A DNA stretch of 64,000 nucleotides from Terrabacter sp. MAHUQ-38 (lineage in GTDB: Bacteria; Actinomycetota; Actinomycetes; Actinomycetales; Dermatophilaceae), in assembly GCF_014518425.1 (NCBI RefSeq), contig NZ_JACVCU010000001.1, positions 1,426,001 through 1,490,000 on the forward strand, written 5' to 3'. The notes below the pieces were generated by a model. It was not told the origin of the DNA. It saw only the letters and a list, made by a program, of their open reading frames with translations, and ran no database searches. The translations under genes were made by a program, and so were the position numbers. Of this stretch, positions 30,125 to 43,288 are shown one piece after another (within the stretch, counting starts at the first letter, position 1; each line of letters opens with the position of its first letter).

Positions 30125-31393
30125 ATGGCCGCTGTCACCCCGTCCGGCACCCCCGTCCCCGAGCGCGTCGCCGTCGTCGGCGCCGGCATGGTCGGCCTCG
30201 CGACCGCGTGGTTCCTCCAGGAGCGCGGCGTCGAGGTCACCGTCATCGACCGCGACGGCGTGGCCGCCGGGGCGTCGTGGGGCAACGCCGGCTGGCTGAC
30301 GCCGGGCATCGCGACGCCGCTGCCCGAGCCTGCCGTCCTGAAGTACGGCCTGCGCGCCGTCCTCAGCCCGAGCTCGCCCGTCTACGTGCCGCCGAGCGCC
30401 CGCCCCGACTTCCTGCGCTTCGTCACCGGCTTCACCCGCCACAGCACGATGAAGGCCTGGAAGAAGGCCATGGGGTCCCTCGTCCCGGTCAACGACCTGT
30501 CGCTGCAGAGCTTCGACCTGCTCAAGGCGGGCGGCGTCGACGCCGACACCTACGAGGCGAAGTCGTTCACCGCCGCCTACCGCACCGCCGAGGAGCGCCA
30601 GACGCTGCTCGAGGAGATCGAGCACATCCACGCGTCCGGCGGCGACATCGCGTTCGACGTCCTCACCGGTGACGAGGCACGTGCCATCGAGCCGGCCCTG
30701 TCCGACCAGATCGGCGCCGCGATCGTGCTCCACGGCCAGCGGTTCATCAACCCCGGCGCCTACGTCGCCGCGCTGGCCGACTCCGTCACCGGGCGTGGCG
30801 GCAAGATCGTCACCGGCAGCGCGGTCACGGCCATCACGGACACCGCCAACGGTGTCGTCATCACCAACGACTTCGGTGGCGCCGAGCACTACGACGCCGT
30901 CGTCGTCGCGACCGGCGCCTGGCTCGGCAAGCTCGCCCGCGAGTTCGGCGTCAGGCGTGTCGTCCAGGCCGGCCGCGGCTACTCGTTCAGCGTCGCCGTC
31001 GAGGACCTGCCCAACGGCCCGGTCTACTTCCCCGCCGCCCGCGTCGCCTGCACGCCGGTCGGAGACCGACTCCGCGTCGCCGGCATGATGGAGTTCCGCC
31101 GGCCCGAGGCCGCCCTCGACCCGCGCCGCATCGCGGCCATCGTCGAGTCCGCCCGCCCGCTGCTCACGGGCGCCGACCTCGACCACCGCCAGGACGAGTG
31201 GGTCGGCTCGCGCCCCTGCACCGTCGACGGGCTGCCGCTCATCGGCGCCACGAAGAGCTCGAAGGTCTTCGTGGCCGGCGGGCACGGCATGTGGGGGATC
31301 ACGCTGGGTCCCGTCACCGGCCGCCTCCTCGCCGAGCAGATCGTCACGGGCACCGCGCCCGAGCAGCTGCGCCCCTTCGACCCGATGCGCTGA
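30125..31393 (+). CDS. dadA: FAD-dependent D-amino acid dehydrogenase (DadA-like)
   Basis: This 422-aa flavoenzyme starts with VAVVGAGMVGLATAWFLQERG (GxGxxG FAD fold) followed by GASWGNAGWLTPG, typical of DadA. The C-terminus has RPCTVDGLPLIG and AGGHGMWGITLGPVTGRLLAEQI. It should oxidise D-alanine or related D-amino acids to the keto acid, passing electrons to the membrane. RBS AGGAG precedes the ATG. It is divergent from the PucR regulator and lies next to the MurNAc salvage cluster, where D-Ala would be released from stem peptides. Confidence 0.8.
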   Translation: MAAVTPSGTPVPERVAVVGAGMVGLATAWFLQERGVEVTVIDRDGVAAGASWGNAGWLTPGIATPLPEPAVLKYGLRAVLSPSSPVYVPPSARPDFLRFVTGFTRHSTMKAWKKAMGSLVPVNDLSLQSFDLLKAGGVDADTYEAKSFTAAYRTAEERQTLLEEIEHIHASGGDIAFDVLTGDEARAIEPALSDQIGAAIVLHGQRFINPGAYVAALADSVTGRGGKIVTGSAVTAITDTANGVVITNDFGGAEHYDAVVVATGAWLGKLAREFGVRRVVQAGRGYSFSVAVEDLPNGPVYFPAARVACTPVGDRLRVAGMMEFRRPEAALDPRRIAAIVESARPLLTGADLDHRQDEWVGSRPCTVDGLPLIGATKSSKVFVAGGHGMWGITLGPVTGRLLAEQIVTGTAPEQLRPFDPMR

Positions 31394-31395
31394 CG

Positions 31396-31983
31396 TCAGG
31401 CGAGTCGGACCGCAGCCGTCCCGAACGCGACGTCGAACCGGTCGCACCAGATGACGACGGACGTCAGGCCGCCGAGGTCGGCGTCGGCCGGGATGACGTA
31501 GTTCTGGTTGCCGTCGGTGCCCTTGAGGTCGCCCAGCGCGACGTACCGTCCGTCGTCGTACCGGTGCCAGTCGGCGTCGCCCGCCGGCTGGTCGGTGAGC
31601 CACACGTCGACGTCGGGGCCGTCGCTCGTCGAGAAGCCCTCGAGCCGGAGCACGCGCGTGCCGTCGGCGAGGGCGAGTACCCGGGCCGTACCCGAGGTCG
31701 CGTGCTCCCCGTCCACGAACCGACCCTCACCGAGCACCCGGACGGATGCGGTGGTGCTCGGCCTCGTCGTGCCGCTCGGGTCAGCGGTCGGAGTCGCGAC
31801 CATCGTCGCGGCGACAGGCAACGGCTCGTCGACCACGCTGCGCGTCAGCAGGCGCCACGGCTGGAAGAGCACGAGGCCGACCGCCAGCGCCACGACGCCG
31901 GCGACGGCGAGCCAGGCCACGAGAGGCCGCCGCAGCAGGCTCCGTCGGTTCGGGTTCGTCGTGCGGGTCGGCTGCTCGGACAT
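31396..31983 (-). CDS. DM13-domain membrane-anchored protein
   Basis: This 195-aa protein has a basic N-terminus, one membrane segment (about 22-40) and a Thr/Ser/Pro linker. An extracytoplasmic DM13 domain follows (ARVLALADGTRVLRLEGFSTSDGPDVDVWLTDQP, ... YVIPADADLGGLTSVVIWCDRFDVAFGTAAV). DM13 domains are proposed to act in redox or electron transfer; the conserved Cys is present in VIWCDRF. ATG at 31983, RBS GGGAGCG. It converges with dadA with a 2-bp gap. Confidence 0.85.
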   Translation of the reverse strand: MSEQPTRTTNPNRRSLLRRPLVAWLAVAGVVALAVGLVLFQPWRLLTRSVVDEPLPVAATMVATPTADPSGTTRPSTTASVRVLGEGRFVDGEHATSGTARVLALADGTRVLRLEGFSTSDGPDVDVWLTDQPAGDADWHRYDDGRYVALGDLKGTDGNQNYVIPADADLGGLTSVVIWCDRFDVAFGTAAVRLA

Positions 31984-32057
31984 GGTCGCTCCCGGTCTGT
32001 GCCGCCGGGCCGGCGCGCCCTGCGGTGCTCCCAGCCAAGCGCCGGTCGCCGGTCGGG

Positions 32058-32093: not shown

Positions 32094-33047
32094 TCAGCCG
32101 ACGACGAGGTATGCCGGGTGCTCGGGGACCCGCCCCGTCTCGAGCAGGTGCCGGGCGAGGAGGAGCGCACCGTCGAGCGCACCGCCCCGCGCAGGGCTCC
32201 GCCTCAGGCCGGCCCTGGTCAGCCGGGCGTCGAGTGCGGCGGTAACGGATGCCGCCGCGAGCAGCCCGCCCGTGGCGACGAGGGTCGGCTCGTCGAGCCC
32301 GTCGGCGGCTCGCAGCAGCGACTCGGCCAGCGCGGCGCCCGCCTGCTCGCACAGCTCGCTCGCGACCGGGTCGCCGTCGGCAGCGGCCGCCGTGACCAGC
32401 GGCGCGACCGACGCGAGGCGCTCGGGAGCATCGGGCGTCGTCATGACGAGTCGCGGCCACGTCTCCGGCACACCGAGCAGGCGGGTCGCCGCCCCGAGCA
32501 GGCGAGCCGAGCCACCTGGCAGGCCGTCGTGGGCCCGCAGTGCCGCGCGCAGCCCGGCCATGCCGAGCACCGCCGCCGACCCCGCGTCGCCGAGGACGTG
32601 CCCCCAGCCGTCGACCCGACGCCACTGCCGGTCGAAGTCCGTCCCGAACGCCACCGCTCCCGTGCCGGCCGCCACGACGGCTCCGGTGCCGAGGCCGCCG
32701 GTCGCGCCGACAAGGTTGGCGACGGCGTCGCTGACGACGACCGTGCTCCCGGCACCGAGGCCGTCGGCGACAGTCCGGAGCACCTTGGCGCGGTCGGCGA
32801 GGAAGAGCAGCCCGCGCATCGACCACACGACGACCTCGGGTGGCCTTGCGGCAGAGGCAGACTCGTCTGCGGCGAGCAGCGACCGGGCGTCCGCCACGAG
32901 CGCCGGCACGTCGATGCCGCCGGTCCGGACCCGTACGCCCGGGGCGCTGAGCACGGGGCCCGGCCCCACGGCATACGTCTGCAGGCGCAGTGCGGAACCG
33001 CCGACGTCGACGGCCACCACCGTCGGTGTCGTGGTCGGCTCGCTCAC
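32094..33047 (-). CDS. BadF/BadG-type amino-sugar kinase (GlcNAc/MurNAc kinase)
   Basis: This is an ASKHA-fold kinase of 317 aa. VVAVDVGGSALRLQ is the phosphate-1 loop, VVSDAVANLVGATGG the next conserved block, and VVAAGTGAVAFGTDFDRQWRRVDGWGHVLGDAGSAAVLG the phosphate-2 and sugar-binding region of N-acetylglucosamine kinases. By position it should phosphorylate imported MurNAc, GlcNAc or both, giving MurNAc-6-P for MurQ. It is the last gene of the murQ-led operon, starting 13 bp after the transporter. Confidence 0.85.
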   Translation of the reverse strand: MSEPTTTPTVVAVDVGGSALRLQTYAVGPGPVLSAPGVRVRTGGIDVPALVADARSLLAADESASAARPPEVVVWSMRGLLFLADRAKVLRTVADGLGAGSTVVVSDAVANLVGATGGLGTGAVVAAGTGAVAFGTDFDRQWRRVDGWGHVLGDAGSAAVLGMAGLRAALRAHDGLPGGSARLLGAATRLLGVPETWPRLVMTTPDAPERLASVAPLVTAAAADGDPVASELCEQAGAALAESLLRAADGLDEPTLVATGGLLAAASVTAALDARLTRAGLRRSPARGGALDGALLLARHLLETGRVPEHPAYLVVG

Positions 33048-33060
33048 GCGAGCGAGCCGA

Positions 33061-33969
33061 TCACTTCGCCATGCCGGCGGTCAAGCCCGCGACGATCTGC
33101 TTCGTGGCGACCAGGAAGAGCACGATGAGCGGGATCGTCGTGATGACGAGGCCGGCGAAGACCGCCGAGTAGTTCGTCGCGTTCTCGCCGAAGAACGTCG
33201 TGAGACCGACGGGCAGCGTGTACTTGTCCTCGCGGCGCAGGAGCACGAGCGGGAAGAGGAAGTCGTTCCAGATCGGTACGAAGCGGAAGACGGCCACGGT
33301 CGCCAGGGCCGGCCGGACGAGCGGGACCATGATCCGCCAGAACGTCTGCCAGCTCGTCGCGCCGTCGAGGGCCGCGGCCTCCTCGAGCTCCTCGGGCAGC
33401 TGCCGGAAGAACGTCGTCAGCACGAAGACCGAGAACGGGATGCCCGACGCGGCGTACATGAGCATCAGGCCGAGACGCGAGTCGATGAGGCCCAGACCGT
33501 CGAAGAGGTAGAAGATCGGCAGGATCGCGAGGTGGATCGGCAGCATGAGACCCGACAGGAAGAGCGACTCGAGCCAGCGGAAGATCCGCGAACGGGCACG
33601 GGCCAGGGCGTACGCCGCCATCGTCGCCACCGAGGTCGAGACCGCGACGGCCCCGACGGTGACGAGCAGCGAGTTGCCGAAGTACGTCGCGAAGTTGCCT
33701 GTCGTCCAGGCCTCGGCGTAGCTCGACGTCGTCGGGGGAGCGGGCAGCCCGAGGGGGTCGGTGATGAGGTCGGCGTTGGACCGGAAGCTGTTGCTCACCA
33801 TGAGCAGCAGCGGCACGAGTGCCAGGGCGGCATACCCCCAGAGCAGCACGCCCGCGCCCGCGCCGCCGACGGGACGGTTGACCCGGGGCGCGCGCCGGCG
33901 GGGACGCGGGGCGACAGGCGTGGTGCTCGCCTCGCCGGGCGCCTCGGTGCTGACGACAGCCGTCGTCAT
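33061..33969 (-). CDS. CUT1 ABC transporter permease, MalG type
   Basis: This 302-aa protein has about six membrane helices and the conserved cytosolic EAA loop, LPEELEEAAALDGATSWQTFWRIMVPLVRPAL, which docks the ATPase. The RRxxK-like N-terminus is long and Arg/Pro-rich. Its ATG overlaps the stop of the other permease. With the partner and the solute-binding lipoprotein it forms an importer. No ATPase gene is nearby, so it probably uses a shared MsiK-type ATPase, as is common for actinobacterial CUT1 systems. Confidence 0.92.
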   Translation of the reverse strand: MTTAVVSTEAPGEASTTPVAPRPRRRAPRVNRPVGGAGAGVLLWGYAALALVPLLLMVSNSFRSNADLITDPLGLPAPPTTSSYAEAWTTGNFATYFGNSLLVTVGAVAVSTSVATMAAYALARARSRIFRWLESLFLSGLMLPIHLAILPIFYLFDGLGLIDSRLGLMLMYAASGIPFSVFVLTTFFRQLPEELEEAAALDGATSWQTFWRIMVPLVRPALATVAVFRFVPIWNDFLFPLVLLRREDKYTLPVGLTTFFGENATNYSAVFAGLVITTIPLIVLFLVATKQIVAGLTAGMAK

Positions 33970-34865
33970 GCGGTGATCCTCCGCTCGTGGCGTCGCAACA
34001 CGGCCGTGGCGACGTAGGCACCGCCGAAGATGAGGAGGAAGAGCAGCGTCGCGAGCGCCGACGAGCTGCCGATCGCGTCGGCCGCGCCCGAGTCGAATGC
34101 TGTCCGGTAGAAGAGCAGTGACACGAAGTCCGTTGCACCCGCAGGGTTTCCGGTCGACCCGCCGAACGCGTACGGCAGCGCGAACGCCTCCATGGCGAAG
34201 ATGAACGTCAGCACGGACACCGTGCCCACCGCCGGCACGAGCAGCGGCAGGGTGATCCTGGAGAAGGCCTGTCGGTTGCTCGCGCCGTCGACGCGGGCCG
34301 CTTCGGTCAGCTCCTCCGGCACGCCGCCGAGCGCCGCTCCGTACAGCAGGACCGGGAAGCCGATCCACTGCCAGACGCTGACGAGGATGACGACCCAGAG
34401 GGCCGTCTTCGGGTCGCCGAGCCACGGAAGTGCCCACGACTCGAGGCCGAGCCCCGTCAGCAGCGTGTTGACCGGGCCGAACGTCGGCGACAGCAGCAGC
34501 GTCCAGAGATAGCCGATGACGATCGGGCTGACGAGGTAGGGCATCGCGTAGAGCGTCTGCAGCATCCGGCGGGTGCGCGGGCGGCTGTGGAGCAGGTACG
34601 CGATGGTGAGGCCGATGGTGTTCTGGATGAGCAACGTGCCGACGAAGAAGAGCACGTTGTGCAGCACCGCTCGCGGCAGGTCCGTCGTGAACGGCGCCTT
34701 CGTGAAGAGCGTCGCGAAGTTCTCGAGCCCGGCGAACGCCCCGCGGGTCGTGCCCTGCCACTGGAAGAAGGCGTACGAGAACGCCGTCACCATCGGGTAG
34801 AGCACGAACACCGCGAAGAGCGCGAGCGCCGGGGCGACGAAGACGAGGCCGGTGCGGCGCCTCAT
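33966..34865 (-). CDS. CUT1 ABC transporter permease, MalF type
   Basis: This 299-aa protein starts with VFVAPALALFAVFVLYPMVTAFSYAFF and has about six helices. The EAA loop is VPEELTEAARVDGASNRQAFSRITLPLLVP. It lies 22 bp downstream of the binding-protein gene and overlaps the second permease by 4 bp. Confidence 0.92.
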   Translation of the reverse strand: MRRRTGLVFVAPALALFAVFVLYPMVTAFSYAFFQWQGTTRGAFAGLENFATLFTKAPFTTDLPRAVLHNVLFFVGTLLIQNTIGLTIAYLLHSRPRTRRMLQTLYAMPYLVSPIVIGYLWTLLLSPTFGPVNTLLTGLGLESWALPWLGDPKTALWVVILVSVWQWIGFPVLLYGAALGGVPEELTEAARVDGASNRQAFSRITLPLLVPAVGTVSVLTFIFAMEAFALPYAFGGSTGNPAGATDFVSLLFYRTAFDSGAADAIGSSSALATLLFLLIFGGAYVATAVLRRHERRITA

Positions 34866-34887
34866 GCCGTGTCTCCTGCGGGAGCCG

Positions 34888-36216
34888 TCATGCGGTCGGC
34901 TTGAACCACGTCTTGACGCCGGCGTCCAGGTCCTGGCTCACTTCGGCGGCGTCCTTCGAGCCGAGCAGCAGCTCCTGCAGGCCCTTGCCGAGCAGGTCGG
35001 TGCCCGACGGCGCGCCGTACCGGAAGTCGGTGAGGAGCAGGTACGGCGACCCGGAGCTCGCGTAGCTGTCGCTCATCTGCTTGAGCAGCGGGTCGGTCGG
35101 CTCGACGCCGGGCACGGCCGAGATCTGCTTGATGTCGTCGGTGACCATCTGGCCGAACTCCTTGGAGGTCATCCACGTGACGAGCTCCGTGGCCTCGGCC
35201 GGGTGCTTGGACCTGGCCGAGACGGCGAAGTTGCCATCGGCCCATCCTGCCGTCGTCGCGGTCGAGCCGCTCGGCGAGCCCGGGGCCGGCGGCACCTGGA
35301 AGATGCCGATCTTCATGCCCGGGTTGGCTTTCTGGAAGACGGACAGGTCGAACGAGCCGCCGGGGATCATCGCGGCCCTCTCGGCGGAGAAGAGCGTCTG
35401 GGCGTCGGTCTGTGCCACGCCGGTGACGTTCTTCGGCATGTACTTGGCGAGCTCTCCGACGACCTGGACCGACCCGACCCAGTCGGGGTCGGTGAAGGTC
35501 TTCTTGCCCGAGAGCACCTCGCCCTGGAACGCCTTGCCGCCGAAGCGCGGTGCAGCCAGCACCTCGTGGACGATCGGCAGCGTCCAGTCGTCCTTGGCGC
35601 CCACCGCGATGGGCGTGACGCCGGCAGCCAGGAGCCTGTCGTTGGCGGCGATGAACTCGGCCCACGTCGTCGGGGCCTTGAGGCCGTTCTTGTCGAAGAG
35701 GCCCTGGTTGTAGAACATCTGGACCGTCTGACGGGCAAGTGGCACGGAGTAGGTCTTGCCGTCCTCCTTGCCCTTGGCGCTCGCGACGACGTTGTCGTCC
35801 CAGCCGGAGAGGTCGACCTTGCCGTCGAGCGGCAGCAGCGACTTGCCGGCAACCGTGCCCTGCAGCTGGCCGTAGGACCGCACCTGCGGCACGTCGGGGC
35901 CGTTCGCCCCGGCGAGGCCGGTCGCGAGGATCTTGTTGTACTCCGTCGCCTTGAACGCCTTGACGTCGATGGTGACGTCGGGGTGGGCCTTCTCGTAGGC
36001 GTCGAAGATCCTGGTGTACGCGGCCTGGTCCTCGACCCGCCACGACCACACCGTCAGGGTGACCTTGCCGTCGCCGCCCTCGCCGCCCGAACCCGACGTG
36101 CCGGTCGTCGAGGGCGAGCAGGCGGTCACGACGAGCGCGCCGGAGAGGGCGGCGATCGCGAGGACCGAGCGGCGGGCCGGCCGGGACGAGCCGGTGAGAC
36201 GGGGGGCGAACGTCAT
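34888..36216 (-). CDS. Sugar ABC transporter solute-binding lipoprotein
   Basis: The protein has 442 aa. The signal peptide ARRSVLAIAALSGALVVTACS ends in a lipobox with Cys. The mature protein is a family 1 extracellular solute-binding protein (VTLTVWSWRVEDQAAYTRIFDAYEKAHPDVTIDV, ... FYNQGLFDKNGLKAPTTWAEF). I choose the second ATG (36216), which is well spaced from AGGAG; the one 6 bases upstream is too close. Cargo is inferred from context to be MurNAc, GlcNAc-MurNAc or GlcNAc. Confidence 0.9.
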   Translation of the reverse strand: MTFAPRLTGSSRPARRSVLAIAALSGALVVTACSPSTTGTSGSGGEGGDGKVTLTVWSWRVEDQAAYTRIFDAYEKAHPDVTIDVKAFKATEYNKILATGLAGANGPDVPQVRSYGQLQGTVAGKSLLPLDGKVDLSGWDDNVVASAKGKEDGKTYSVPLARQTVQMFYNQGLFDKNGLKAPTTWAEFIAANDRLLAAGVTPIAVGAKDDWTLPIVHEVLAAPRFGGKAFQGEVLSGKKTFTDPDWVGSVQVVGELAKYMPKNVTGVAQTDAQTLFSAERAAMIPGGSFDLSVFQKANPGMKIGIFQVPPAPGSPSGSTATTAGWADGNFAVSARSKHPAEATELVTWMTSKEFGQMVTDDIKQISAVPGVEPTDPLLKQMSDSYASSGSPYLLLTDFRYGAPSGTDLLGKGLQELLLGSKDAAEVSQDLDAGVKTWFKPTA

Positions 36217-36283
36217 GGTCATGCTCCTGTCGGGTTCTGTTCCGTGCCGAGACGCTCGGCGCGTGCCTGGTGGGAGGGTGGAG

Positions 36284-37213
36284 TCAGCGTTCGGGGGTGC
36301 CGGTGGCGGGACCACCGAGTGCGGCCAGGGCCTGCGCGACCGAGCCGTCGTGCTCGGCCAGGGCCTCTCTCGCGGTGGCGACGTCGGCGCCCGCGAGCAT
36401 CGCGAGGAGGGCGGGCTTGAGCTCACCATCGGCGTCGTCGAGGGCTCGGCGGGCGCGCTCGGCGTCGGCCCCGGTCGCCTCCTGGAGGATCCGCACGACG
36501 CGGCCGCGGAGCTTCGCGTTCGTCGCGACGACGTCGACCATGAAGTTGCTCCACGTGCGGCCGAGGCGGATCATCACGGCCGTCGAGAACGAGTTGAGGA
36601 TGAGCTTCTGGGCGGTGCCCGCCTTGAGCCGGGTCGAGCCGGTCAGCGCCTCGGCCCCGGTGCGCGCCGCGAGCAGGTGGTCGGCGTGGACCGCCAGCTC
36701 CGCGGCCGGGTTGGCCGTGACGAGGGCAGTGACCGCGCCGAGCTCGCGGGCGCGGGCGAGCGCCCCCGCGACGAACGGGGTGCGGCCGGACGCAGTGAGC
36801 CCGATGGCGATGTCCCCGGCCACGAGCGCCTCGGCCTCGGACCGACCGAGCTCGACGTCGTCCTCGACGTTCTCGACCGGCTCGACGAGCGCCGCGGGGC
36901 CACCGGCGTGGTGTGCGACGACCAGGCCTGCGGGGGCGTTGAACGTCGGGCGCAGCTCGGCTGCGTCGAGGACGGCCAGGCGGCCGGACGTGCCGGCACC
37001 GAAGTAGTGGACGGTGCCTCCGGCGCGGAGCGACTCGACGGCTCGGTCGACGAGGCGGGCGAGCTCGGGGAGCACCTCGCTCACGGCGCCGGCCACCGTG
37101 GCGTCCTCGGCGTTGAGTGCCCGGAGGATGTCGAGGGAGGTTTGGGTGTCGATGGACCTCGTCCCCGGATGGCGCTGCTCGGTGGGGGCGTCCACGGTCA
37201 CCTCGTTGCTCAC
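36284..37213 (-). CDS. murQ: N-acetylmuramic acid 6-phosphate etherase MurQ
   Basis: It cleaves the lactyl ether of MurNAc-6-P to give GlcNAc-6-P and lactate. The 309 aa carry the hallmark YFGAGTSGRLAVLDAAELRPTFN, IAIGLTASGRTPFVAGAL and STRLKAGTAQKLILNSFSTAVMIRLG, all SIS-domain blocks specific to MurQ. It uses a GTG start. The promoter directly upstream predicts a nearly leaderless transcript. It heads the operon murQ-binding protein-permeases-kinase. Confidence 0.96.
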   Translation of the reverse strand: MSNEVTVDAPTEQRHPGTRSIDTQTSLDILRALNAEDATVAGAVSEVLPELARLVDRAVESLRAGGTVHYFGAGTSGRLAVLDAAELRPTFNAPAGLVVAHHAGGPAALVEPVENVEDDVELGRSEAEALVAGDIAIGLTASGRTPFVAGALARARELGAVTALVTANPAAELAVHADHLLAARTGAEALTGSTRLKAGTAQKLILNSFSTAVMIRLGRTWSNFMVDVVATNAKLRGRVVRILQEATGADAERARRALDDADGELKPALLAMLAGADVATAREALAEHDGSVAQALAALGGPATGTPER

Positions 37214-37220
37214 CCGTGTG

Positions 37221-37249
37221 AGGTTAGTTTCCTACGCACAAGCCGTCAA
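37221..37249 (-). promoter_or_regulatory. murQ promoter, probably leaderless
   Basis: On the minus strand TTGACG (37244-37249) and TAACCT (37221-37226) are separated by exactly 17 bp. The GTG start codon begins 7 bases after the -10, where transcription should start, so the mRNA would have no leader. Confidence 0.65.
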
Positions 37250-37253
37250 TGCC

Positions 37254-37266
37254 GTAAATCAGTAAC
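37254..37266. promoter_or_regulatory. Candidate MurR/RpiR operator before murQ
   Basis: GTAAATCAGTAAC is an imperfect inverted repeat of the form GTNAA-N3-NTNAC. It sits 4 bp upstream of the murQ -35 and resembles the repeat before nagZ (43179-43191). Confidence 0.4.
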
Positions 37267-37328
37267 ATTCGCGACACGATGGCCTCCACCCAGGTCGAGT
37301 GGGCACCTCGCATCGTGCCTGCGGCGAC

Positions 37329-38228
37329 TCAGTCGGTGAGGTGATGGCCGGCGACGGCCTCACGGGTGTCGACGACGGCCTTGCGCACCTTACGGAGGTT
37401 GCGCTGGGCGACGGCGATGTAGAGACAGTCGACGACGGTGAGCGCCGCGATACGGCTGGCGGTGGCGCCGGAGCGCAGGCTCGTCTCGCGGGCCGCGGTC
37501 GTCAGCAGGTAGTCGACACCGGACGCGAGCCGGGACAGCGGGAAGTTCGTGATGGCAAGCGTCTTCGCGCCGGTCGAGCGGGCCGCGGCGAGCGCCTCGA
37601 TCGTCTCCGTCGTCGTGCCGGAGTGGGAGATGCCGATGGCGATGTCCCCTCGGGTGAGCAGGGTCGCGCTCGTCAGGGCGATGTGCGGGTCGTTCCACGC
37701 GAAGGCGACGATGCCGATGCGGTGGAGCTTCTGCTGCAGGTCGGTGCCGACGATGGCGCTGGCGGCGACGCCGTAGATGTCGACGCGACCGGCCTTGGCG
37801 ATGAAGGCGGCCGCGGCAGCGAGCGCCTCGCGGTCGAGCTGCTGCGCCGTCTCCTCGACGGCGCTCGCATCGGTGAAGGCGACCTTGGCCACGATGTCGT
37901 CGATGGTGTCGCTCGCGCTGATGTCGGTACCGCTGCCGCGCATCGTGCGCGGCTGGGCCGACTCCTCGGCGAGGGCGAGGCGCAGCTGCGGGTAGCCGGG
38001 AAGCCCGAGACGGCGGCAGAAGCGCAGCACCGTCGTCTCCGACGTGCGTGCCGCCGTGGCGAGCTCGCTGATGGTCAGGCCGGCCGCGCGCCGCGCGTCG
38101 GCGAGCACGATGTCGGCAACGCGGTCCTCGGCGGGCGACAGCGAGGGCTTGATCCCACGCAGGCGGATGAGCAGCGACGCGCCGGCCACGCCTGCGGGGG
38201 ACGAGGCCCCGTCCTCGGTCCTGGGCAT
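37329..38228 (-). CDS. murR: RpiR-family regulator, MurR-like
   Basis: The protein has 299 aa. The N-terminal HTH_6 domain contains GLTISELATAARTSETTVLRFCRRLGLPGYPQLRLAL. The C-terminal SIS domain, VDIYGVAASAIVGTDLQQKLHRIG ... GISHSGTTTETIEALAAARSTGAKTLAITN, binds sugar phosphates. In B. subtilis and E. coli, MurR answers to MurNAc-6-P and represses salvage genes; that role is inferred here from context. It starts 4 bp after the serine hydrolase gene. Confidence 0.9.
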   Translation of the reverse strand: MPRTEDGASSPAGVAGASLLIRLRGIKPSLSPAEDRVADIVLADARRAAGLTISELATAARTSETTVLRFCRRLGLPGYPQLRLALAEESAQPRTMRGSGTDISASDTIDDIVAKVAFTDASAVEETAQQLDREALAAAAAFIAKAGRVDIYGVAASAIVGTDLQQKLHRIGIVAFAWNDPHIALTSATLLTRGDIAIGISHSGTTTETIEALAAARSTGAKTLAITNFPLSRLASGVDYLLTTAARETSLRSGATASRIAALTVVDCLYIAVAQRNLRKVRKAVVDTREAVAGHHLTD

Positions 38229-38232
38229 GGGG

Positions 38233-39966
38233 CTACGCTACGGCGTCGCGGCCCGCGAGCCGCCACCCATCGGCCGTGAACGCCTCGGGTGTCTTCTCGC
38301 CGTCGAGCAGGATGCCGCCCGGCCCGCTGACGAGCACCTCGTCGACAGCGACGCCTCTGCCGAGGTAGCCGCTGTCGGTCGTGTGCCGCCAGCGGACCTG
38401 CTGGGCACCGGGCCGCAGGTCGGCGCGCACCTGGACCCAGCGCCGCGTACCGGAGCCGGCGATGACTCCGTCGCAGGCCGCGGCCTCCCCGCGGTCGACG
38501 ACCTCGAACGGCACCGCCGTCCAGGTCTGGCCCTCGTCGGTCGAGCGCTCGAGGTGGAGCAGGTCCGTCTCCTCCGTGTCGAGGAAGAGGTCGAAGCCGA
38601 GGCGGGCGCCGCCCGCGCCCACCGGGAGGGTCAGCGTCGTCAGCGTCGTCGTGGCGGCGTTCTCCCCGCCGGTGAACCAGGCCGTGTCGCCGTGGCGCGG
38701 GCGGAGGCCCATGGACGCGGCCAGCCCGTGGGCCCACTCGCGGCGGGCGATGTTGGTCGAGCCCCAGCTGCGTGACGGGTGCACACGGTTGGTCAGCAGG
38801 ATCGCGAACGAGCGCGACGTGAAGTCGATGACGATAGAGGTGCCCGTGTAGCCGGTGTGGCCGGCCGTGCGCGGGCCGGCCAGCGCGTCCATGTACCACC
38901 GCTGGTCGAGCTCGAAGCCGAGGCCGTGGTCGTCTCCCGGGAAGTCGCCGTTGACGTTGGTGACCAAGGCCTCGACGCTCCTGCGACTGAGGATGCGGTG
39001 GCCCTCGTAGGTGCCGCCGTTGAGCAGCGCCTGCGACAGGGTCGCGAGGTCGTCGGCCGTCGAGAAGACCCCAGCGTGCCCGGCGACGCCGCCGAGCGAC
39101 CACGCGTTCTCGTCGTGCACCTCACCGCGCACCATGCCGCGCGGCGGTGCCGTCTGGTACTCCGTGGCCGCGGTCCGGCCCTTGTCGGTGGGGTTGTAGC
39201 CGGTGTCCGTCATGCCGAGCGGCGCCGTGATGCGGTCGTGCACGACGACGTCCAGCGGCGCGCCGCGAAGCCTCTCGACCAGGACCCCGAGGGTGATGAG
39301 GTTGAGGTCGCTGTAGAGGTAGGTGGAACCGGCCGGGTTGGTGAGCGGCTGGTCCATGACGGCCTTGATCCGCGAGGCCTTGTCGGGGTACCTGCTCCAG
39401 AGCGGCAGCCACGACGTGAAGCCGGACGTGTGGGCGAGCAGCTGGCTCACGGTGACTCTCGACTTGCCGTTCGCCGCGAACTCCGGGAGGTATGCCTCCA
39501 CCGGGCTCTCGAGCGAGACGCGGCCCTCCTCGACGAGCTGGACGACGGCGATCGACGTGAAGAGCTTGCTGACCGACGCGAGGTCGAAGATCGTGTCGGT
39601 GCGCATCGGCTCCCACTGGTCGCGGGGCAGCTCTGTCGTCGCGTCGGCGTAGCGCAGGGCCCAGCCGCTCGCGTCGCGCTCGACGACGTGGCCCTCGTGG
39701 CCCATGAGTGCGACCGCCCCGGCGAAGAGCGGGTGCGCGCCGGCGAGGGCCTCCTCGTGCGCGTGCACCTGCGCGACGGACTCCGCGATCGGCGCGGGGT
39801 CGAGCCCGAGCGAGGCTGGGCTCGCGTCGGTCAGCACGGTGTTGGGCGGCGCGAAACCGCGGTCGGGCTTGCTGAAGTCGTCGGCGGCCGCCGGCCCCGC
39901 TGTCACGAGGCTGCCCGCCAGGGCGAAGCTGCCGAGGGCTGCCGGGACGAGGGTGCGCAGGCGCAT
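38233..39966 (-). CDS. Exported beta-lactamase-fold serine hydrolase, AmiE/YbbE-like
   Basis: This 577-aa protein has a Sec signal peptide (cleavage near AAADD). The catalytic Ser-x-x-Lys is SVSK (131-134), with a YSD motif near 218-220. The first 430 residues are a class C beta-lactamase/CubicO domain. About 140 C-terminal residues form a beta-rich accessory domain (FDLFLDTEETDLLHLERSTDEGQTW). By its place between namZ and murR it probably corresponds to B. subtilis AmiE (YbbE), which removes stem peptides from MurNAc. A generic D-Ala-D-Ala peptidase is the alternative. Confidence 0.8.
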   Translation of the reverse strand: MRLRTLVPAALGSFALAGSLVTAGPAAADDFSKPDRGFAPPNTVLTDASPASLGLDPAPIAESVAQVHAHEEALAGAHPLFAGAVALMGHEGHVVERDASGWALRYADATTELPRDQWEPMRTDTIFDLASVSKLFTSIAVVQLVEEGRVSLESPVEAYLPEFAANGKSRVTVSQLLAHTSGFTSWLPLWSRYPDKASRIKAVMDQPLTNPAGSTYLYSDLNLITLGVLVERLRGAPLDVVVHDRITAPLGMTDTGYNPTDKGRTAATEYQTAPPRGMVRGEVHDENAWSLGGVAGHAGVFSTADDLATLSQALLNGGTYEGHRILSRRSVEALVTNVNGDFPGDDHGLGFELDQRWYMDALAGPRTAGHTGYTGTSIVIDFTSRSFAILLTNRVHPSRSWGSTNIARREWAHGLAASMGLRPRHGDTAWFTGGENAATTTLTTLTLPVGAGGARLGFDLFLDTEETDLLHLERSTDEGQTWTAVPFEVVDRGEAAACDGVIAGSGTRRWVQVRADLRPGAQQVRWRHTTDSGYLGRGVAVDEVLVSGPGGILLDGEKTPEAFTADGWRLAGRDAVA

Positions 39967-40002
39967 GTCACTCCTTGATCGTGCAGCAGTCGAAAGGGCA
40001 GG

Positions 40003-41325
40003 TCACTGCGCCGGGCCGGGGTAGATGAGGTACGGCTGTCGCCGGGCGTCGAAGTCGGCCAGCTCGTCCCGCCACGAGCCCACAACCTCGTCGGCCGAGG
40101 CGCCCGCCGAGATCTGCGTGCGCAGGCGCTGCGACCCGGTCAGCTTGTCGATCCAGTACGGCCGTGCCGGGTCGTAGGAGTCGTAGCGCCACGCGAAGTC
40201 GCTGTAGAGCGCCCGCGCCGCCACCAGCATCTCGACGGCGGACCGGACCGGGTCGAAGCGGGACGGGTCGGTGACGTGCAGCTGGACGCCGCCGCAGACG
40301 ACCCCGGCGTGCTTGTTGAACGTGGGCGTGAAGTAGGCCTCACGGAAGACGACGCCCGGAACGTCACGTGCCGCAAGGCGTTCGGCCCACGTGTAGTCCA
40401 CGTACGGTGCTCCGATGAGCTCGAACGGGCGTGTGGTGCCGCGTCCCTCGGAGAGGTTCGTGCCCTCGAACATGCCCGTGCCCGGGTAGGCGAGCGCGGT
40501 GTCGGGCGTCGGCATGTTGGGACTCGGCGTGACCCACGGCAGGCCGGTGACGGCATACGGCACGTCCCGGCGCCAGCCCTTGACCTCGACGACGGAGAGC
40601 TCCTCCAGCCGCGCCCCTGCATCGGCCGCGAGGAGCTCCCCGTCGAAGAAGCGCGCCAGCTCGCCGACCGTCATGCCGTGCGCCTGGACGATCTCCTTCG
40701 CGCCGACGCCGGAGGTCCACGGCGTCGTCATCATCGGGCCGATCGCCCTGCCGCCGATGGGGTTGGGGCGGTCGAGCACGACGAAGCGCGCGCCCACCGC
40801 AACGGCCGCTCGCATCGCCGTGTACATCGTCCAGATGTAGGTGTAGAAGCGCGCGCCGACGTCCTGGATGTCGAAGACGACGGTCTCGACGCCTGCCGTG
40901 CGAAAGAGCGTCGTCATCTTCGTCGCGTCGGCGCCGTAGGCGTCGTAGACCGTGAGGCCGGTGCGCGGGTCGGTGTGCGTGCCCTCGGAGCCGCCGGCCT
41001 GGGCCGTGCCCCGGAAGCCGTGCTCGGGGCCGAAGACGCCGACGATGTCGACGGAACCGGACTCGTGCATCTCGTCGACGATCGTGCGGAGGTTCGTGAG
41101 GATGCCGGTCGGGTTGGTGATGATGCCGACCTTCTGGCCCGCGAGCGTCGACCAACCCGCAGCCGCCGCGTTCTGGGCTCCGGTCGTCACGGGGTTGACC
41201 GGGTAGCTGCTCGCGTATGCCGTCGGGTTGGGTTGCGCCGCAACGGCACCCGCCGCCGTGGCCGGGATGACGACGGCGCCGAGGGCACCGGCGGTGAGCA
41301 GCTGCCTGCGGGTGGGACTGGTCAT
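40003..41325 (-). CDS. namZ: Exo-beta-N-acetylmuramidase NamZ (DUF1343)
   Basis: The protein has 440 aa. The twin-Arg TRRQLLTAG and hydrophobic run predict Tat export. DUF1343 signatures: KVGIITNPTGIL, VFGPEHGFRG, VFDIQDVGARFYTYIWTMY, LDRPNPIGG, and NMPTPDTALAYPGTGMFEGTNLSEGRGTTRPFE. In B. subtilis NamZ removes terminal MurNAc from the non-reducing end of peptidoglycan fragments. It lies 19 bp after nagZ and 36 bp before the AmiE-like gene, so all share a transcript. Confidence 0.93.
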   Translation of the reverse strand: MTSPTRRQLLTAGALGAVVIPATAAGAVAAQPNPTAYASSYPVNPVTTGAQNAAAAGWSTLAGQKVGIITNPTGILTNLRTIVDEMHESGSVDIVGVFGPEHGFRGTAQAGGSEGTHTDPRTGLTVYDAYGADATKMTTLFRTAGVETVVFDIQDVGARFYTYIWTMYTAMRAAVAVGARFVVLDRPNPIGGRAIGPMMTTPWTSGVGAKEIVQAHGMTVGELARFFDGELLAADAGARLEELSVVEVKGWRRDVPYAVTGLPWVTPSPNMPTPDTALAYPGTGMFEGTNLSEGRGTTRPFELIGAPYVDYTWAERLAARDVPGVVFREAYFTPTFNKHAGVVCGGVQLHVTDPSRFDPVRSAVEMLVAARALYSDFAWRYDSYDPARPYWIDKLTGSQRLRTQISAGASADEVVGSWRDELADFDARRQPYLIYPGPAQ

Positions 41326-41344
41326 CTGGAGCTCTCCGATCGCG

Positions 41345-43162
41345 TCAGTAGGTCAGCCCGTGCCCGAACGGGTAGAGCACGGTCGCGGGGTCATCGGCCA
41401 CCGGGATGTCGACCGGCAACGATGCCGTCGGTGCGACGTCGCCCGTGATGACGCGCGCGGCCGCCTCGACGGCCACCGGGCTGAAGGAGTACGTCGCGAC
41501 GTAGGTCGGCGCGTCGGTGAAGTACGCGATGTCGTAGGGGTCGCGCACCGCCACGACGACGACGGTCCTTCCCGTCGCGAGCAGCTGCTTGACGAGCTTC
41601 TGCTGGCCACCACGGGGGTCGGTGACCCTCGTGTCCCAGGCCTTCATGGTCGTGACGACGACGACGTCCTTGTCGGCGGCAGCAGCCACGGCGGCAGCGA
41701 CCTGCGTGTCGGTCGGCGACGAACCGGTCTGGAGGTTCTGCACCGTCCCACCCTTCGCGGTCAGGGCCGCCGCGAGGGTCGCGGTCGTCGAGACTCCGTA
41801 GCCGGTGACGAGCACCTTCTTGCCGCTCGGGTTCATCGGCAGCGCCGTGGCGTCGTTCTTGACGAGGGTCGTCGTGCGCGCCGTCACGGCGTTCGCCGCG
41901 GCGAGGTGAGCGGGGATGCCGACGACCGACGCGACCCGGGCAGGGTCGGCGTACGGCTGGGCGACGACCCCGCGGCGGTACTTGAGGCGGAGCACCCGAC
42001 GCACCTTCTCGTCGAGCTCGTCGGGCCGGATGCGGTGGCTGCGCACGGCGGCCAGCACGGCGGCGTACGCCTCGTCCATGGCGGGGCTCATGAGCAGCTG
42101 GTCGACGCCCGCGAGGAGCGCGCGCACCGGCACCTCGGCGTCACCGTACCTGTCACGGACGCCTTGCATGCCGAGCGAGTCCGTGACGATGACGCCGTCG
42201 TAGCCGAGCTCCTCGCGCAGGACCCCGGTGAGGATCGGGCGGCTCAGCGTGGCGGGGTCGCCGGAGTCGTCGAACGCCGGGAACGCGAGGTGCGCGGTCA
42301 TGATCATGTCGATGCCCTCGCGGATCGCGGCCTTGAACGGCGGGGCGTCGATGCTCTCCCACTGCTCGCGGGTGTGCGTGATGACCGGGAACGCGACATG
42401 GCTGTCGGTGGCGGTGTCGCCATGGCCGGGGAAGTGCTTCGCCGACGACGAGACGCCGCCGTCGCGCTGGTACCCGGCGACCTGTGCCGCGGCGAGCTCG
42501 GCCGCGAGGTCGGGGTGCGACGAGAACGACCGCGTGCCGATGACGGGGTTGAGCGCGTTGACGTTGACGTCGCAGACGGGCGCGAAGTTCGTGTTGACGC
42601 CCATGGCGAGCAGCTCGCGCCCGGTGATCGCGGCGGCGGTGCGCGCGTCGGGGGCGCTGTCGCCGGCTCCGAGAGCCATCGACCCGGGGAACTGGGTGGC
42701 CGGCGGGCCGATCCGGGTGACGACGCCCTGCTCCTGGTCGATCGCGACCTGCAGCGGGACCGGCGCGCTGGTGCGCCGGCCCAGCGACGCGCGTTGCAGC
42801 CCGTTCGACAGCCGTACGATCTGGTCGGGGTCCTGGACGCTGTCGGTCCACGCGAAGTAGATGACGCCGCCGAGGTGGTACTTCTGCACGACCTCGGCCG
42901 GGCTCGCGACACCGTAGAGCGGCAGGTTGCGGCTGTCAGGGGCCGTCGCGTCCTTGCCGTAGACGTTCTGGATGAAGAGCTGACCGACCTTCTCCTCCAA
43001 GGTCATCCGGCTCATCGTCGCGGTGACCCAACCGTCCTCGCCGGCGCGGCCGGTGGGAGCCGTCGTCCCTGCGGCGCGGGCACTGCCGGCTGCGACGCCC
43101 GTGGCCGCGGTGGCGAGTCCTCCGGCGAGCACGGACCGACGAGAGGGGTCTGAGATGGACAT
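41345..43162 (-). CDS. nagZ: Exported GH3 beta-N-acetylglucosaminidase NagZ
   Basis: The protein has 605 aa with a Tat-type signal (SRRSVLAGG, then an Ala-rich run). KHFPGHGDTATDSH (242-255) is the NagZ-specific Asp/His dyad, and VIVTDSLGM holds the nucleophile Asp328. A second C-terminal domain (about 400-605) makes it the two-domain secreted form found in Bacillus rather than the short cytosolic enzyme of Gram-negatives. GGAGG precedes the ATG at 43162. It heads the nagZ-namZ-amiE-murR unit. Confidence 0.93.
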   Translation of the reverse strand: MSISDPSRRSVLAGGLATAATGVAAGSARAAGTTAPTGRAGEDGWVTATMSRMTLEEKVGQLFIQNVYGKDATAPDSRNLPLYGVASPAEVVQKYHLGGVIYFAWTDSVQDPDQIVRLSNGLQRASLGRRTSAPVPLQVAIDQEQGVVTRIGPPATQFPGSMALGAGDSAPDARTAAAITGRELLAMGVNTNFAPVCDVNVNALNPVIGTRSFSSHPDLAAELAAAQVAGYQRDGGVSSSAKHFPGHGDTATDSHVAFPVITHTREQWESIDAPPFKAAIREGIDMIMTAHLAFPAFDDSGDPATLSRPILTGVLREELGYDGVIVTDSLGMQGVRDRYGDAEVPVRALLAGVDQLLMSPAMDEAYAAVLAAVRSHRIRPDELDEKVRRVLRLKYRRGVVAQPYADPARVASVVGIPAHLAAANAVTARTTTLVKNDATALPMNPSGKKVLVTGYGVSTTATLAAALTAKGGTVQNLQTGSSPTDTQVAAAVAAAADKDVVVVTTMKAWDTRVTDPRGGQQKLVKQLLATGRTVVVVAVRDPYDIAYFTDAPTYVATYSFSPVAVEAAARVITGDVAPTASLPVDIPVADDPATVLYPFGHGLTY

Positions 43163-43178: not shown

Positions 43179-43191
43179 GTGAACAATTCAC
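43179..43191. promoter_or_regulatory. Candidate MurR/RpiR operator before nagZ
   Basis: GTGAACAATTCAC is a perfect 5-bp inverted repeat around a 3-base centre, 16 bp before the nagZ ATG. GAATG and CATTC flank it as an outer pair. It resembles the repeat before murQ. Nothing else is seen in 43163-43288. Confidence 0.5.
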
Positions 43192-43288
43192 GCATTCTGC
43201 CGTTGGGCCGGAACTTACCTACGTAGCGTGGCGAAGGCAACAGCCAGCGGCGCGTCAGCTGACGACGCGCGCGCCGGGGCGGCCGCGC

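What the first reader, a model, noticed from the sequence alone, without database searches (positions are those of the whole stretch)
32094..43162. Complete MurNAc/peptidoglycan-fragment salvage cluster with ABC importer and kinase instead of PTS
Seen: nine same-strand genes in two units, nagZ-namZ-amiE-like-murR and murQ-binding lipoprotein-permease-permease-BadF kinase. NagZ, NamZ and the AmiE-like enzyme all have export signals; MurQ and the kinase do not. Known: in B. subtilis murQ-murR-murP-amiE-nagZ-namZ digests peptidoglycan outside the cell and imports MurNAc by the PTS permease MurP. Inference: here a CUT1 importer brings in unphosphorylated MurNAc (or GlcNAc-MurNAc) and the kinase makes MurNAc-6-P for MurQ. 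No ATPase gene is present, so a shared MsiK-type ATPase is likely. I know of no well characterised ABC importer for MurNAc in actinobacteria.
Basis: partly seen in the sequence, partly recalled or inferred. Interest (0 to 1): 0.82.

Follow-up and report, generated by a model that had tools for sequence, protein, structure and literature searches.

The report
ABC-kinase route for muramic acid
A soil actinobacterium carries a gene set that appears to digest bacterial cell walls outside the cell, import the wall sugar MurNAc through a sugar ABC importer, and phosphorylate it with a separate kinase, in place of the PTS importer known from other bacteria; the substrate still has to be tested.

Summary
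That genome has no PF00367-type PTS EIIB and no AnmK, but has NagA- and NagB-like genes and a MsiK/UgpC-type ATPase elsewhere. Among 78 named loci found with a binding-protein alignment, the 20 that are at least 60% identical and have 6-kb flanks all carry murQ, and 19 carry the kinase; below 60% it is 21 of 35 for murQ. In kinase-selected loci, 32 of 35 high-scoring kinases have murQ. The kinase's best solved match is Clostridium acetobutylicum MurK, narrowly ahead of a hexokinase. Two relatives keep murQ-kinase without the ABC genes; another has an EIIB beside murQ. A palindrome found post hoc lies in both promoter regions. Against: nothing is assayed; three relatives keep murQ with no kinase homologue, no close binding protein and no EIIB; the amidase assignment is weak; no MurR model passes its cut-off. 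Verdict: new variant of a known kind, a PTS-free B. subtilis-type MurNAc salvage cluster. Listed hits of my open-library searches showed no CUT1 importer for MurNAc.

The parts
41345..43162 (-). nagZ: exported GH3 beta-N-acetylglucosaminidase, two-domain Gram-positive type
   Evidence: Pfam GH3 282 bits; best solved relative B. subtilis YbbD/NagZ 3bmx, 317 bits, DSH and VTD motifs conserved (catalytic roles recalled); twin-arginine N-terminus by eye; NCBIfam below cut-off
40003..41325 (-). namZ: exported exo-beta-N-acetylmuramidase family
   Evidence: NamZ_N 238 bits and NamZ_C 193 bits; PDB relatives 4k05 and 4jja
38233..39966 (-). amiE-like: exported serine beta-lactamase-fold hydrolase with a C-terminal MAM-like domain; amidase role inferred from position only
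   Evidence: Beta-lactamase 223 bits, InhA-like_MAM 36 bits; SxxK seen in the alignments; NCBIfam best PBP4B, 177 bits, cut-off 385
37329..38228 (-). murR-like RpiR-family regulator (HTH_6 + SIS)
   Evidence: no NCBIfam model over its cut-off
36284..37213 (-). murQ: MurNAc-6-phosphate etherase
   Evidence: NF003915 355 bits, cut-off 168; TIGR00274 290, cut-off 302; PDB 4s12 262 bits with two Glu positions conserved (their catalytic role is recalled)
34888..36222 (-). CUT1-type solute-binding lipoprotein, proposed MurNAc receptor
   Evidence: SBP_bac_1 112 bits; alignment A1; AlphaFold model pLDDT 83.5, fold of sugar-binding proteins
33966..34865 (-). permease 1 (CUT1), EAA-type loop read in the sequence
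   Evidence: BPD_transp_1 75 bits
33061..33969 (-). permease 2 (CUT1), overlaps permease 1 by 4 bp
   Evidence: BPD_transp_1 73 bits
32094..33047 (-). MurK-like BadF-family kinase, proposed MurNAc 6-kinase
   Evidence: BcrAD_BadFG 52.5 bits; best sequence and fold match C. acetobutylicum MurK 8zo3, with S. tokodaii hexokinase close behind; D14, G16, G17, D107, G128, G130, G147-H150, D154 invariant in 20 aligned
43212..43240 (-). candidate nagZ promoter, TTGCCT-17-TAAGTT
   Evidence: conserved in an alignment of 13 upstream regions; the consensus scanner reported no promoter here
43179..43191 (-). candidate operator GTGAATTGTTCAC
   Evidence: pattern GTKANTNNTTYAC: 2 matches in the window, 0.07 expected; pattern written after seeing the alignment
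37254..37266 (-). candidate operator GTTACTGATTTAC, just upstream of the murQ -35
   Evidence: same post hoc pattern
37221..37249 (-). candidate murQ promoter, TTGACG-17-TAACCT, 7 nt before the GTG start (perhaps leaderless)
   Evidence: alignment; inference; not reported by the scanner

Best explanation
This is a PTS-free MurNAc catabolic cluster. Shown by sequence: the nine genes, their order and its conservation. Inferred: exported NagZ, NamZ and a serine hydrolase trim wall fragments outside the cell to GlcNAc, MurNAc and peptide. The lipoprotein captures MurNAc, less likely a MurNAc-bearing disaccharide, and the two CUT1 permeases import it unphosphorylated, driven by a MsiK/UgpC-type ATPase shared with other sugar importers. 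[quoted passage not shown] The RpiR-type regulator probably controls both units through a shared palindrome.
For: No PF00367 EIIB and no AnmK in a genome rated 100% complete, so neither of these two known sources of MurNAc-6P was found. NagA-like 206 bits and NagB-like 225 bits, both a little under cut-off. Binding protein and murQ: 53 of 78 loci, and 20 of 20 at 60% identity or more with 6-kb flanks. Of 14 full-flank loci without local murQ, 13 genomes have a MurQ match of 213 bits or more elsewhere (one with a stop inside); background, 26 of 58 relatives. Kinase and murQ: 32 of 35 high-scoring kinases in kinase-selected loci. Swaps: murQ-kinase without ABC in L102 and L103, with no close binding protein in those genomes; EIIB beside murQ in G021. 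Kinase best matched by C. acetobutylicum MurK. ATPase NF008653 476 bits, cut-off 432. Operator-like palindrome in both promoter regions.
Against: No binding or kinase assay. C. acetobutylicum MurK also takes GlcNAc, with slight preference for it (PMC5790795, passages), and the MurK match leads a hexokinase only narrowly (112 against 106 bits; the hexokinase has the higher TM-score). Of 26 MurQ-centred loci, 8 show no kinase-profile hit (L044, L045, L048, L052, L056, L058, L061, L062); three of these genomes (G024, G033, G034) have no kinase homologue by this query, no close binding protein and no PF00367 EIIB. Below 60% identity 14 of 35 full-flank binding-protein loci lack murQ, one beside a beta-galactosidase-like gene (by eye). 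The alignment used for that scan was itself built from proteins of mostly murQ-linked loci, and many loci are close relatives. The operator pattern was defined after looking.
Confidence: 0.72

Rival explanations
1. The importer takes up a larger fragment, such as GlcNAc-MurNAc or a MurNAc-peptide, and some trimming happens inside.
For: The nearest solved binding proteins bind oligosaccharides (RafE, xylan-utilisation and chitin-oligosaccharide binding proteins). The best NCBIfam model is the NgcE N-acetylglucosamine/diacetylchitobiose type, far below cut-off (77 against 400 bits).
Against: NagZ and NamZ carry export signals (by eye), and the intracellular enzymes of the cluster, the kinase and MurQ, act on monosaccharides in their characterised relatives.
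Confidence: 0.15
2. The ABC importer and the kinase serve GlcNAc released by NagZ, and MurNAc-6P reaches MurQ by another route.
For: Solved relatives of the kinase include GlcNAc kinases (1zc6, 2ch5), and C. acetobutylicum MurK accepts GlcNAc (PMC5790795, passages). A paralogous binding protein-permease-kinase cassette at G000:C14 lies with a beta-N-acetylglucosaminidase and a NagB-II-like gene, so these protein families can serve other amino sugars.
Against: That paralogous cassette may already serve GlcNAc. The kinase stays beside murQ where the ABC genes are absent (L102, L103). No PF00367 EIIB or AnmK was found to supply MurNAc-6P.
Confidence: 0.1
3. The cluster serves mainly recycling of the cell's own wall rather than feeding on outside peptidoglycan. 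This does not exclude the best explanation; it concerns the source of the sugar.
For: murQ mutants of B. subtilis, S. aureus and S. coelicolor accumulate MurNAc-6P from their own walls (PMC5061867, passages).
Against: Three hydrolases with export signals and a binding-protein importer fit scavenging equally well; nothing here separates the two.
Confidence: 0.3

Closest known systems
B. subtilis murQ-murR-murP-amiE-nagZ-ybbC cluster (PMC5061867, passages; that ybbC is NamZ is recalled)
   Same: nagZ, a NamZ-family gene, an RpiR-type regulator and murQ are shared, with a serine beta-lactamase-fold hydrolase where amiE would be (that AmiE has this fold is recalled)
   Different: MurP PTS permease replaced by a CUT1 importer plus a kinase; other gene order; NagZ and NamZ look Tat-exported (by eye)
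Tannerella forsythia murT-murK-murQ (PMC5790795 and PMC10465942, passages)
   Same: uptake of unphosphorylated MurNAc, a BadF-family MurNAc kinase, then MurQ
   Different: MurT is a secondary transporter, here an ABC importer; the kinase is nearer the C. acetobutylicum than the Tannerella enzyme
Clostridium acetobutylicum MurK (PDB 8zo3)
   Same: best sequence and fold match of the kinase
   Different: 20% identity in the fold alignment; substrate preference here unknown; gene context of the clostridial enzyme not seen (paper not held)
Streptomyces coelicolor SCO4305-4308 (PMC5061867, passages)
   Same: actinobacterial MurQ with a MurR-like regulator and no MurP
   Different: no ABC importer named in that cluster; two genes of unknown function
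Agrobacterium YejBEF-YepA (PMC9790009, passages)
   Same: an ABC importer for peptidoglycan fragments
   Different: a peptide-type ABC importer for muropeptides, not a CUT1 sugar importer

Membership tests
B. subtilis-type murQRP-amiE-nagZ-namZ cluster | two-domain NagZ of the B. subtilis type | tested here: met
   317 bits to B. subtilis NagZ over both domains, catalytic motifs conserved; NCBIfam NagZ model below cut-off
B. subtilis-type murQRP-amiE-nagZ-namZ cluster | NamZ | tested here: met
   both NamZ Pfam domains
B. subtilis-type murQRP-amiE-nagZ-namZ cluster | MurQ | tested here: met
   two of three NCBIfam etherase models passed, the third 290 against 302 bits; solved etherases
B. subtilis-type murQRP-amiE-nagZ-namZ cluster | MurR regulator | tested here: inconclusive
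   RpiR-family architecture, but the MurR model gives 115 against 408 bits and no model passes
B. subtilis-type murQRP-amiE-nagZ-namZ cluster | AmiE N-acetylmuramoyl-L-alanine amidase | tested here: inconclusive
   serine beta-lactamase fold and cluster position only; AmiE itself was not compared and no curated family passes
B. subtilis-type murQRP-amiE-nagZ-namZ cluster | MurP PTS EIIBC permease | tested here: not met
   no PF00367 EIIB in the genome; 5 of 14 control genomes ring
MurK MurNAc/GlcNAc 6-kinase | BadF/BcrA family and fold | tested here: met
   PF01869; AlphaFold model pLDDT 94, first match 8zo3, hexokinase 2e2n close behind
MurK MurNAc/GlcNAc 6-kinase | catalytic Asp and phosphate-binding motifs | tested here: met
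   D107, D14-x-G16-G17, G128 and G130 invariant and T129 nearly so in 20 aligned; that D107 is the catalytic Asp (Tannerella D95, PMC10465942) is inferred from the offsets
MurK MurNAc/GlcNAc 6-kinase | phosphorylates MurNAc at O6 | not testable with these tools
   needs an assay
CUT1 sugar importer with shared MsiK ATPase | binding lipoprotein and two permeases without an ATPase gene | tested here: met
CUT1 sugar importer with shared MsiK ATPase | a MsiK/UgpC-type ATPase elsewhere | tested here: met
   G000:C16:80254 matches NF008653 at 476 bits, cut-off 432; a second, at 431.5, lies among ugp-like genes (neighbours named by eye); coupling to this importer untested
CUT1 sugar importer with shared MsiK ATPase | substrate is MurNAc | not testable with these tools
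   only genomic context

The most novel reading that the evidence does not exclude
A dedicated family of CUT1 sugar-ABC importers for MurNAc, using a shared MsiK-type ATPase and coupled to a MurK-type kinase, operates in Actinomycetota and Chloroflexota. It would be the missing MurNAc transporter for many bacteria that have MurQ but no MurP, within a salvage island whose transport module (PTS; CUT1 importer plus kinase; other transporters plus kinase) has been swapped repeatedly beside a constant murQ.
Probability: 0.6. Interest if true: 0.72.

Novelty: new variant of a known kind. Interest (0 to 1): 0.6.

Why it matters
Some well-studied actinobacteria have MurQ but no MurP: S. coelicolor lacks a MurP orthologue (PMC5061867, passages), and a 2026 preprint finds no MurP in the mycobacteria it tested and speculates about an unknown MurNAc transporter (PMC13041923, passages; it also names a MurK in M. 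smegmatis). This cluster names a concrete candidate binding protein, permease pair and kinase with a clear test, in genera that include cultured soil bacteria. If right, it gives a sequence marker for bacteria that can eat or recycle wall sugar.

Tried and rejected
Rejected: a MurP-type PTS route in this genome (one search finds no PF00367). Rejected: AnmK as the MurNAc-6P source (one search finds none). Rejected: the idea that the binding protein is always beside murQ; 14 of 35 full-flank loci under 60% identity are not, though 13 of those 14 genomes have a MurQ match of 213 bits or more elsewhere (one with a stop inside) and the fourteenth, a 2.2-Mb genome, only 24 bits. Tried without gain: the promoter and terminator scanner (no promoter at its threshold); shared k-mers between the two promoter regions; the other six genome matches of the operator pattern (one lies just before a gene that looks like a four-carbon acid sugar kinase; by eye the rest show no link to the pathway). 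The fold search of the binding protein gave general sugar-binding proteins, so it does not name the ligand. Search in papers for NamZ listed little that bears on this.

What the counts rest on. (murQ over 150 bits, kinase over 120) gives 52 murQ and 39 murQ plus kinase of 78; (looser, over 100 and 60 bits) gives 53 and 48. The alignment for the scan (A1) was built from the window's protein, five from MurQ-selected loci, ten from kinase-selected loci and one (L120) found by binding-protein search, so the scan is centred on the murQ-linked group; the 78 loci include several of the genomes seen before and many close relatives. The 60 kinase-selected loci (L099-L118, L124-L163) were picked by me from the upper part of the list (129 of 297 genomes matched). 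Dropped before counts: profile hits under 40 bits and kinase hits of about 450 bp or less. The kinase of L111, listed, is missing, apparently through my overlap filter; so the 60 kinases counted come from 59 of 60 loci, L132 giving two. Misses among the 35 high scorers: L106 (contig ends just after the binding protein), L114 and L144. Below 300 bits 12 of 25 have murQ. Loci L037-L062 were chosen by MurQ and are not in the 32 of 35.
Full report
What is there. Nine minus-strand genes lie at 32094-43162: nagZ, namZ, an AmiE-like serine hydrolase and murR; then, after a 115-bp gap, murQ, a binding lipoprotein, two permeases and a BadF-family kinase. Pfam gives the families. NCBIfam is less generous: MurQ passes two of three etherase models and misses the equivalog narrowly (290 against 302 bits), and no model passes for NagZ, MurR, the binding protein, the permeases or the kinase. 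NagZ is closest among solved structures to B. subtilis NagZ (317 bits) with the DSH and VTD motifs conserved. MurQ matches solved etherases at up to 262 bits. NamZ has both domains of its family. The hydrolase in the AmiE position has the serine beta-lactamase fold and an SxxK motif, but its amidase role is a guess from position.

Genome context. The window lies in a 5.16-Mb genome of 18 contigs. The genome has no PF00367 EIIB and no AnmK, while 5 of 14 control genomes ring for each. It has one NagA-like gene (206 bits, cut-off 226) and one NagB-like gene (225 bits, cut-off 237). The two best MalK-type ATPases are C16:80254, beside a divergent sugar-binding-protein-like gene, and C14:132156, among ugp-like genes (neighbours named by eye); the first passes the UgpC-type model at 476 bits, the second reaches 431.5 against 432. 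Nineteen stretches of this genome match the binding protein at E up to 0.001, so a shared ATPase is plausible.

Conservation. Of 58 relatives searched, 26 have a strong MurQ. Among the 26 roughly 20-kb loci around these MurQs, nine show all nine genes in order, seven of them in the same genus; 18 of 26 have a kinase-profile hit and 8 do not. A scan of named genomes with the binding-protein alignment gave 78 loci. Of these, 53 carry murQ and 48 murQ plus kinase at loose thresholds (52 and 39 at stricter ones). At 60% identity or more with at least 6 kb on both sides it is 20 of 20 for murQ and 19 of 20 for the kinase as well; under 60%, 21 of 35 for murQ and 19 of 35 for both. Twenty of 78 show nagZ-namZ-amiE-murR-murQ-binding protein-permease-kinase in that order (the two permeases are not always separated there). 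Eight of the 16 Chloroflexota loci have murQ, and seven of these have the order binding protein-permease-permease-amiE-kinase-murQ (L208, L210, L222 cut short, L225, L227, L230, L233), with distant kinases of 95-120 bits. Fourteen full-flank loci lack local murQ; 13 of those genomes have a MurQ match of 213 bits or more elsewhere. In the tree of binding proteins these rows nest among murQ-linked ones (quick method, SH-aLRT support only, rooted on a distant paralogue).

Kinase. In kinase-selected loci 32 of 35 kinases scoring 300 bits or more have murQ in the locus, against 12 of 25 below. Kinases linked to this type of binding protein are clustered but not one clade (6 changes against 18.7 in shuffles). 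Sequence and fold searches put C. acetobutylicum MurK first, but Sulfolobus hexokinase follows closely (7.3e-12 and 2.4e-11; 112 and 106 bits; the hexokinase has the slightly higher TM-score). C. acetobutylicum MurK takes MurNAc and GlcNAc, with slight preference for GlcNAc (PMC5790795, passages). The catalytic aspartate of Tannerella MurK (PMC10465942, passages) should correspond to invariant D107 (inferred).

Swapped modules. In G021, same family, a PTS EIIB domain lies directly beside murQ, the MurP-like arrangement. In G043, another family, murQ and kinase stand with AnmK-like and symporter-like genes, and also with permeases of another, distantly related ABC set (names by eye), so its transporter is not clear. 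G024, G033 and G034 have murQ without a kinase homologue by this query, without a close binding protein and without PF00367 EIIB; my model does not explain them. The eight same-genus genomes tested, the window's included, lack EIIB.

Regulation. Alignments of 13 upstream regions each show a conserved promoter-like pair and a palindrome before nagZ, and a related palindrome before murQ. The pattern GTKANTNNTTYAC, written after seeing these, has exactly two matches in the window, at those two sites, with 0.07 expected. The genome has eight matches in all against two for the reversed control, so six lie elsewhere and the pattern is not unique to the cluster. It occurs in 14 of 28 murR-murQ gaps and 14 of 24 nagZ upstream regions, many from close relatives, with about none in shuffles. 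Binding by MurR is inferred.

A paralogous cassette. At G000:C14 a binding protein 45% identical, permeases and a kinase 34% identical stand with a beta-N-acetylglucosaminidase-family protein, a NagB-II-like protein (199 bits, cut-off 430) and a GntR-UTRA regulator. It looks like a GlcNAc-type system and shows that the families used here also serve other amino sugars.

Literature. In the listed hits of nine searches of one open library (a tenth was on NamZ) I saw no CUT1 importer for MurNAc. I saw passages, not whole texts, of PMC5061867, PMC13041923, PMC10465942, PMC6165865, PMC11382707, PMC6572805, PMC5790795, PMC13209645, PMC6593405 and PMC9790009. A 2026 review names AmpG, OppBCDF-MppA, YejBEF-YepA and MurP for wall fragments and MurNAc (PMC13209645, passages). 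The C. acetobutylicum MurK paper is not held, so an earlier mention of an ABC importer there cannot be excluded.

Judgement. It is a new variant of a known salvage system, with a practical candidate for a missing transporter.

Noticed in passing
window 30125-31393 (+) and 28314-29972 (-): A D-amino-acid dehydrogenase-like gene and a PucR/AdeR-like regulator lie beyond the cluster; both are also in 4 of the 7 same-genus loci L037-L043 (stretches of limited length) and in L044. D-alanine from wall peptides could be the link, but this is a guess.
   Followed up: partly
window 31396-31995 (-): A DM13-domain protein (102 bits) follows the kinase on the same strand; it lies at varying distance in relatives.
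   Followed up: partly
L119 (G000:C14:402001-422000): Paralogous binding protein-permease-permease-BadF kinase cassette with two SIS proteins, a ceramidase-like protein, a beta-N-acetylglucosaminidase-family enzyme and a GntR-UTRA regulator.
   Followed up: partly
L044, L045, L048 (G024, G034, G033): murQ kept with murR (and the hydrolases in two) but no kinase homologue, close binding protein or PF00367 EIIB found in the genome; the MurNAc-6P source is unexplained.
   Followed up: no
L049, L108, L109, L118, L124, L157 and others: In other families of the order a second, distantly related ABC binding protein (about 70-90 bits to this profile) stands with permeases and nagZ near murQ and the kinase; L049 also has AnmK-like and symporter-like genes. 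It may import another wall fragment.
   Followed up: no
L248 (G000:C16:18913): An operator-pattern match lies just upstream of a gene that looks like a four-carbon acid sugar kinase (by eye), a possible further target or chance.
   Followed up: no
window 38233-39966 (-): The AmiE-like protein carries a C-terminal InhA-like MAM domain.
   Followed up: no
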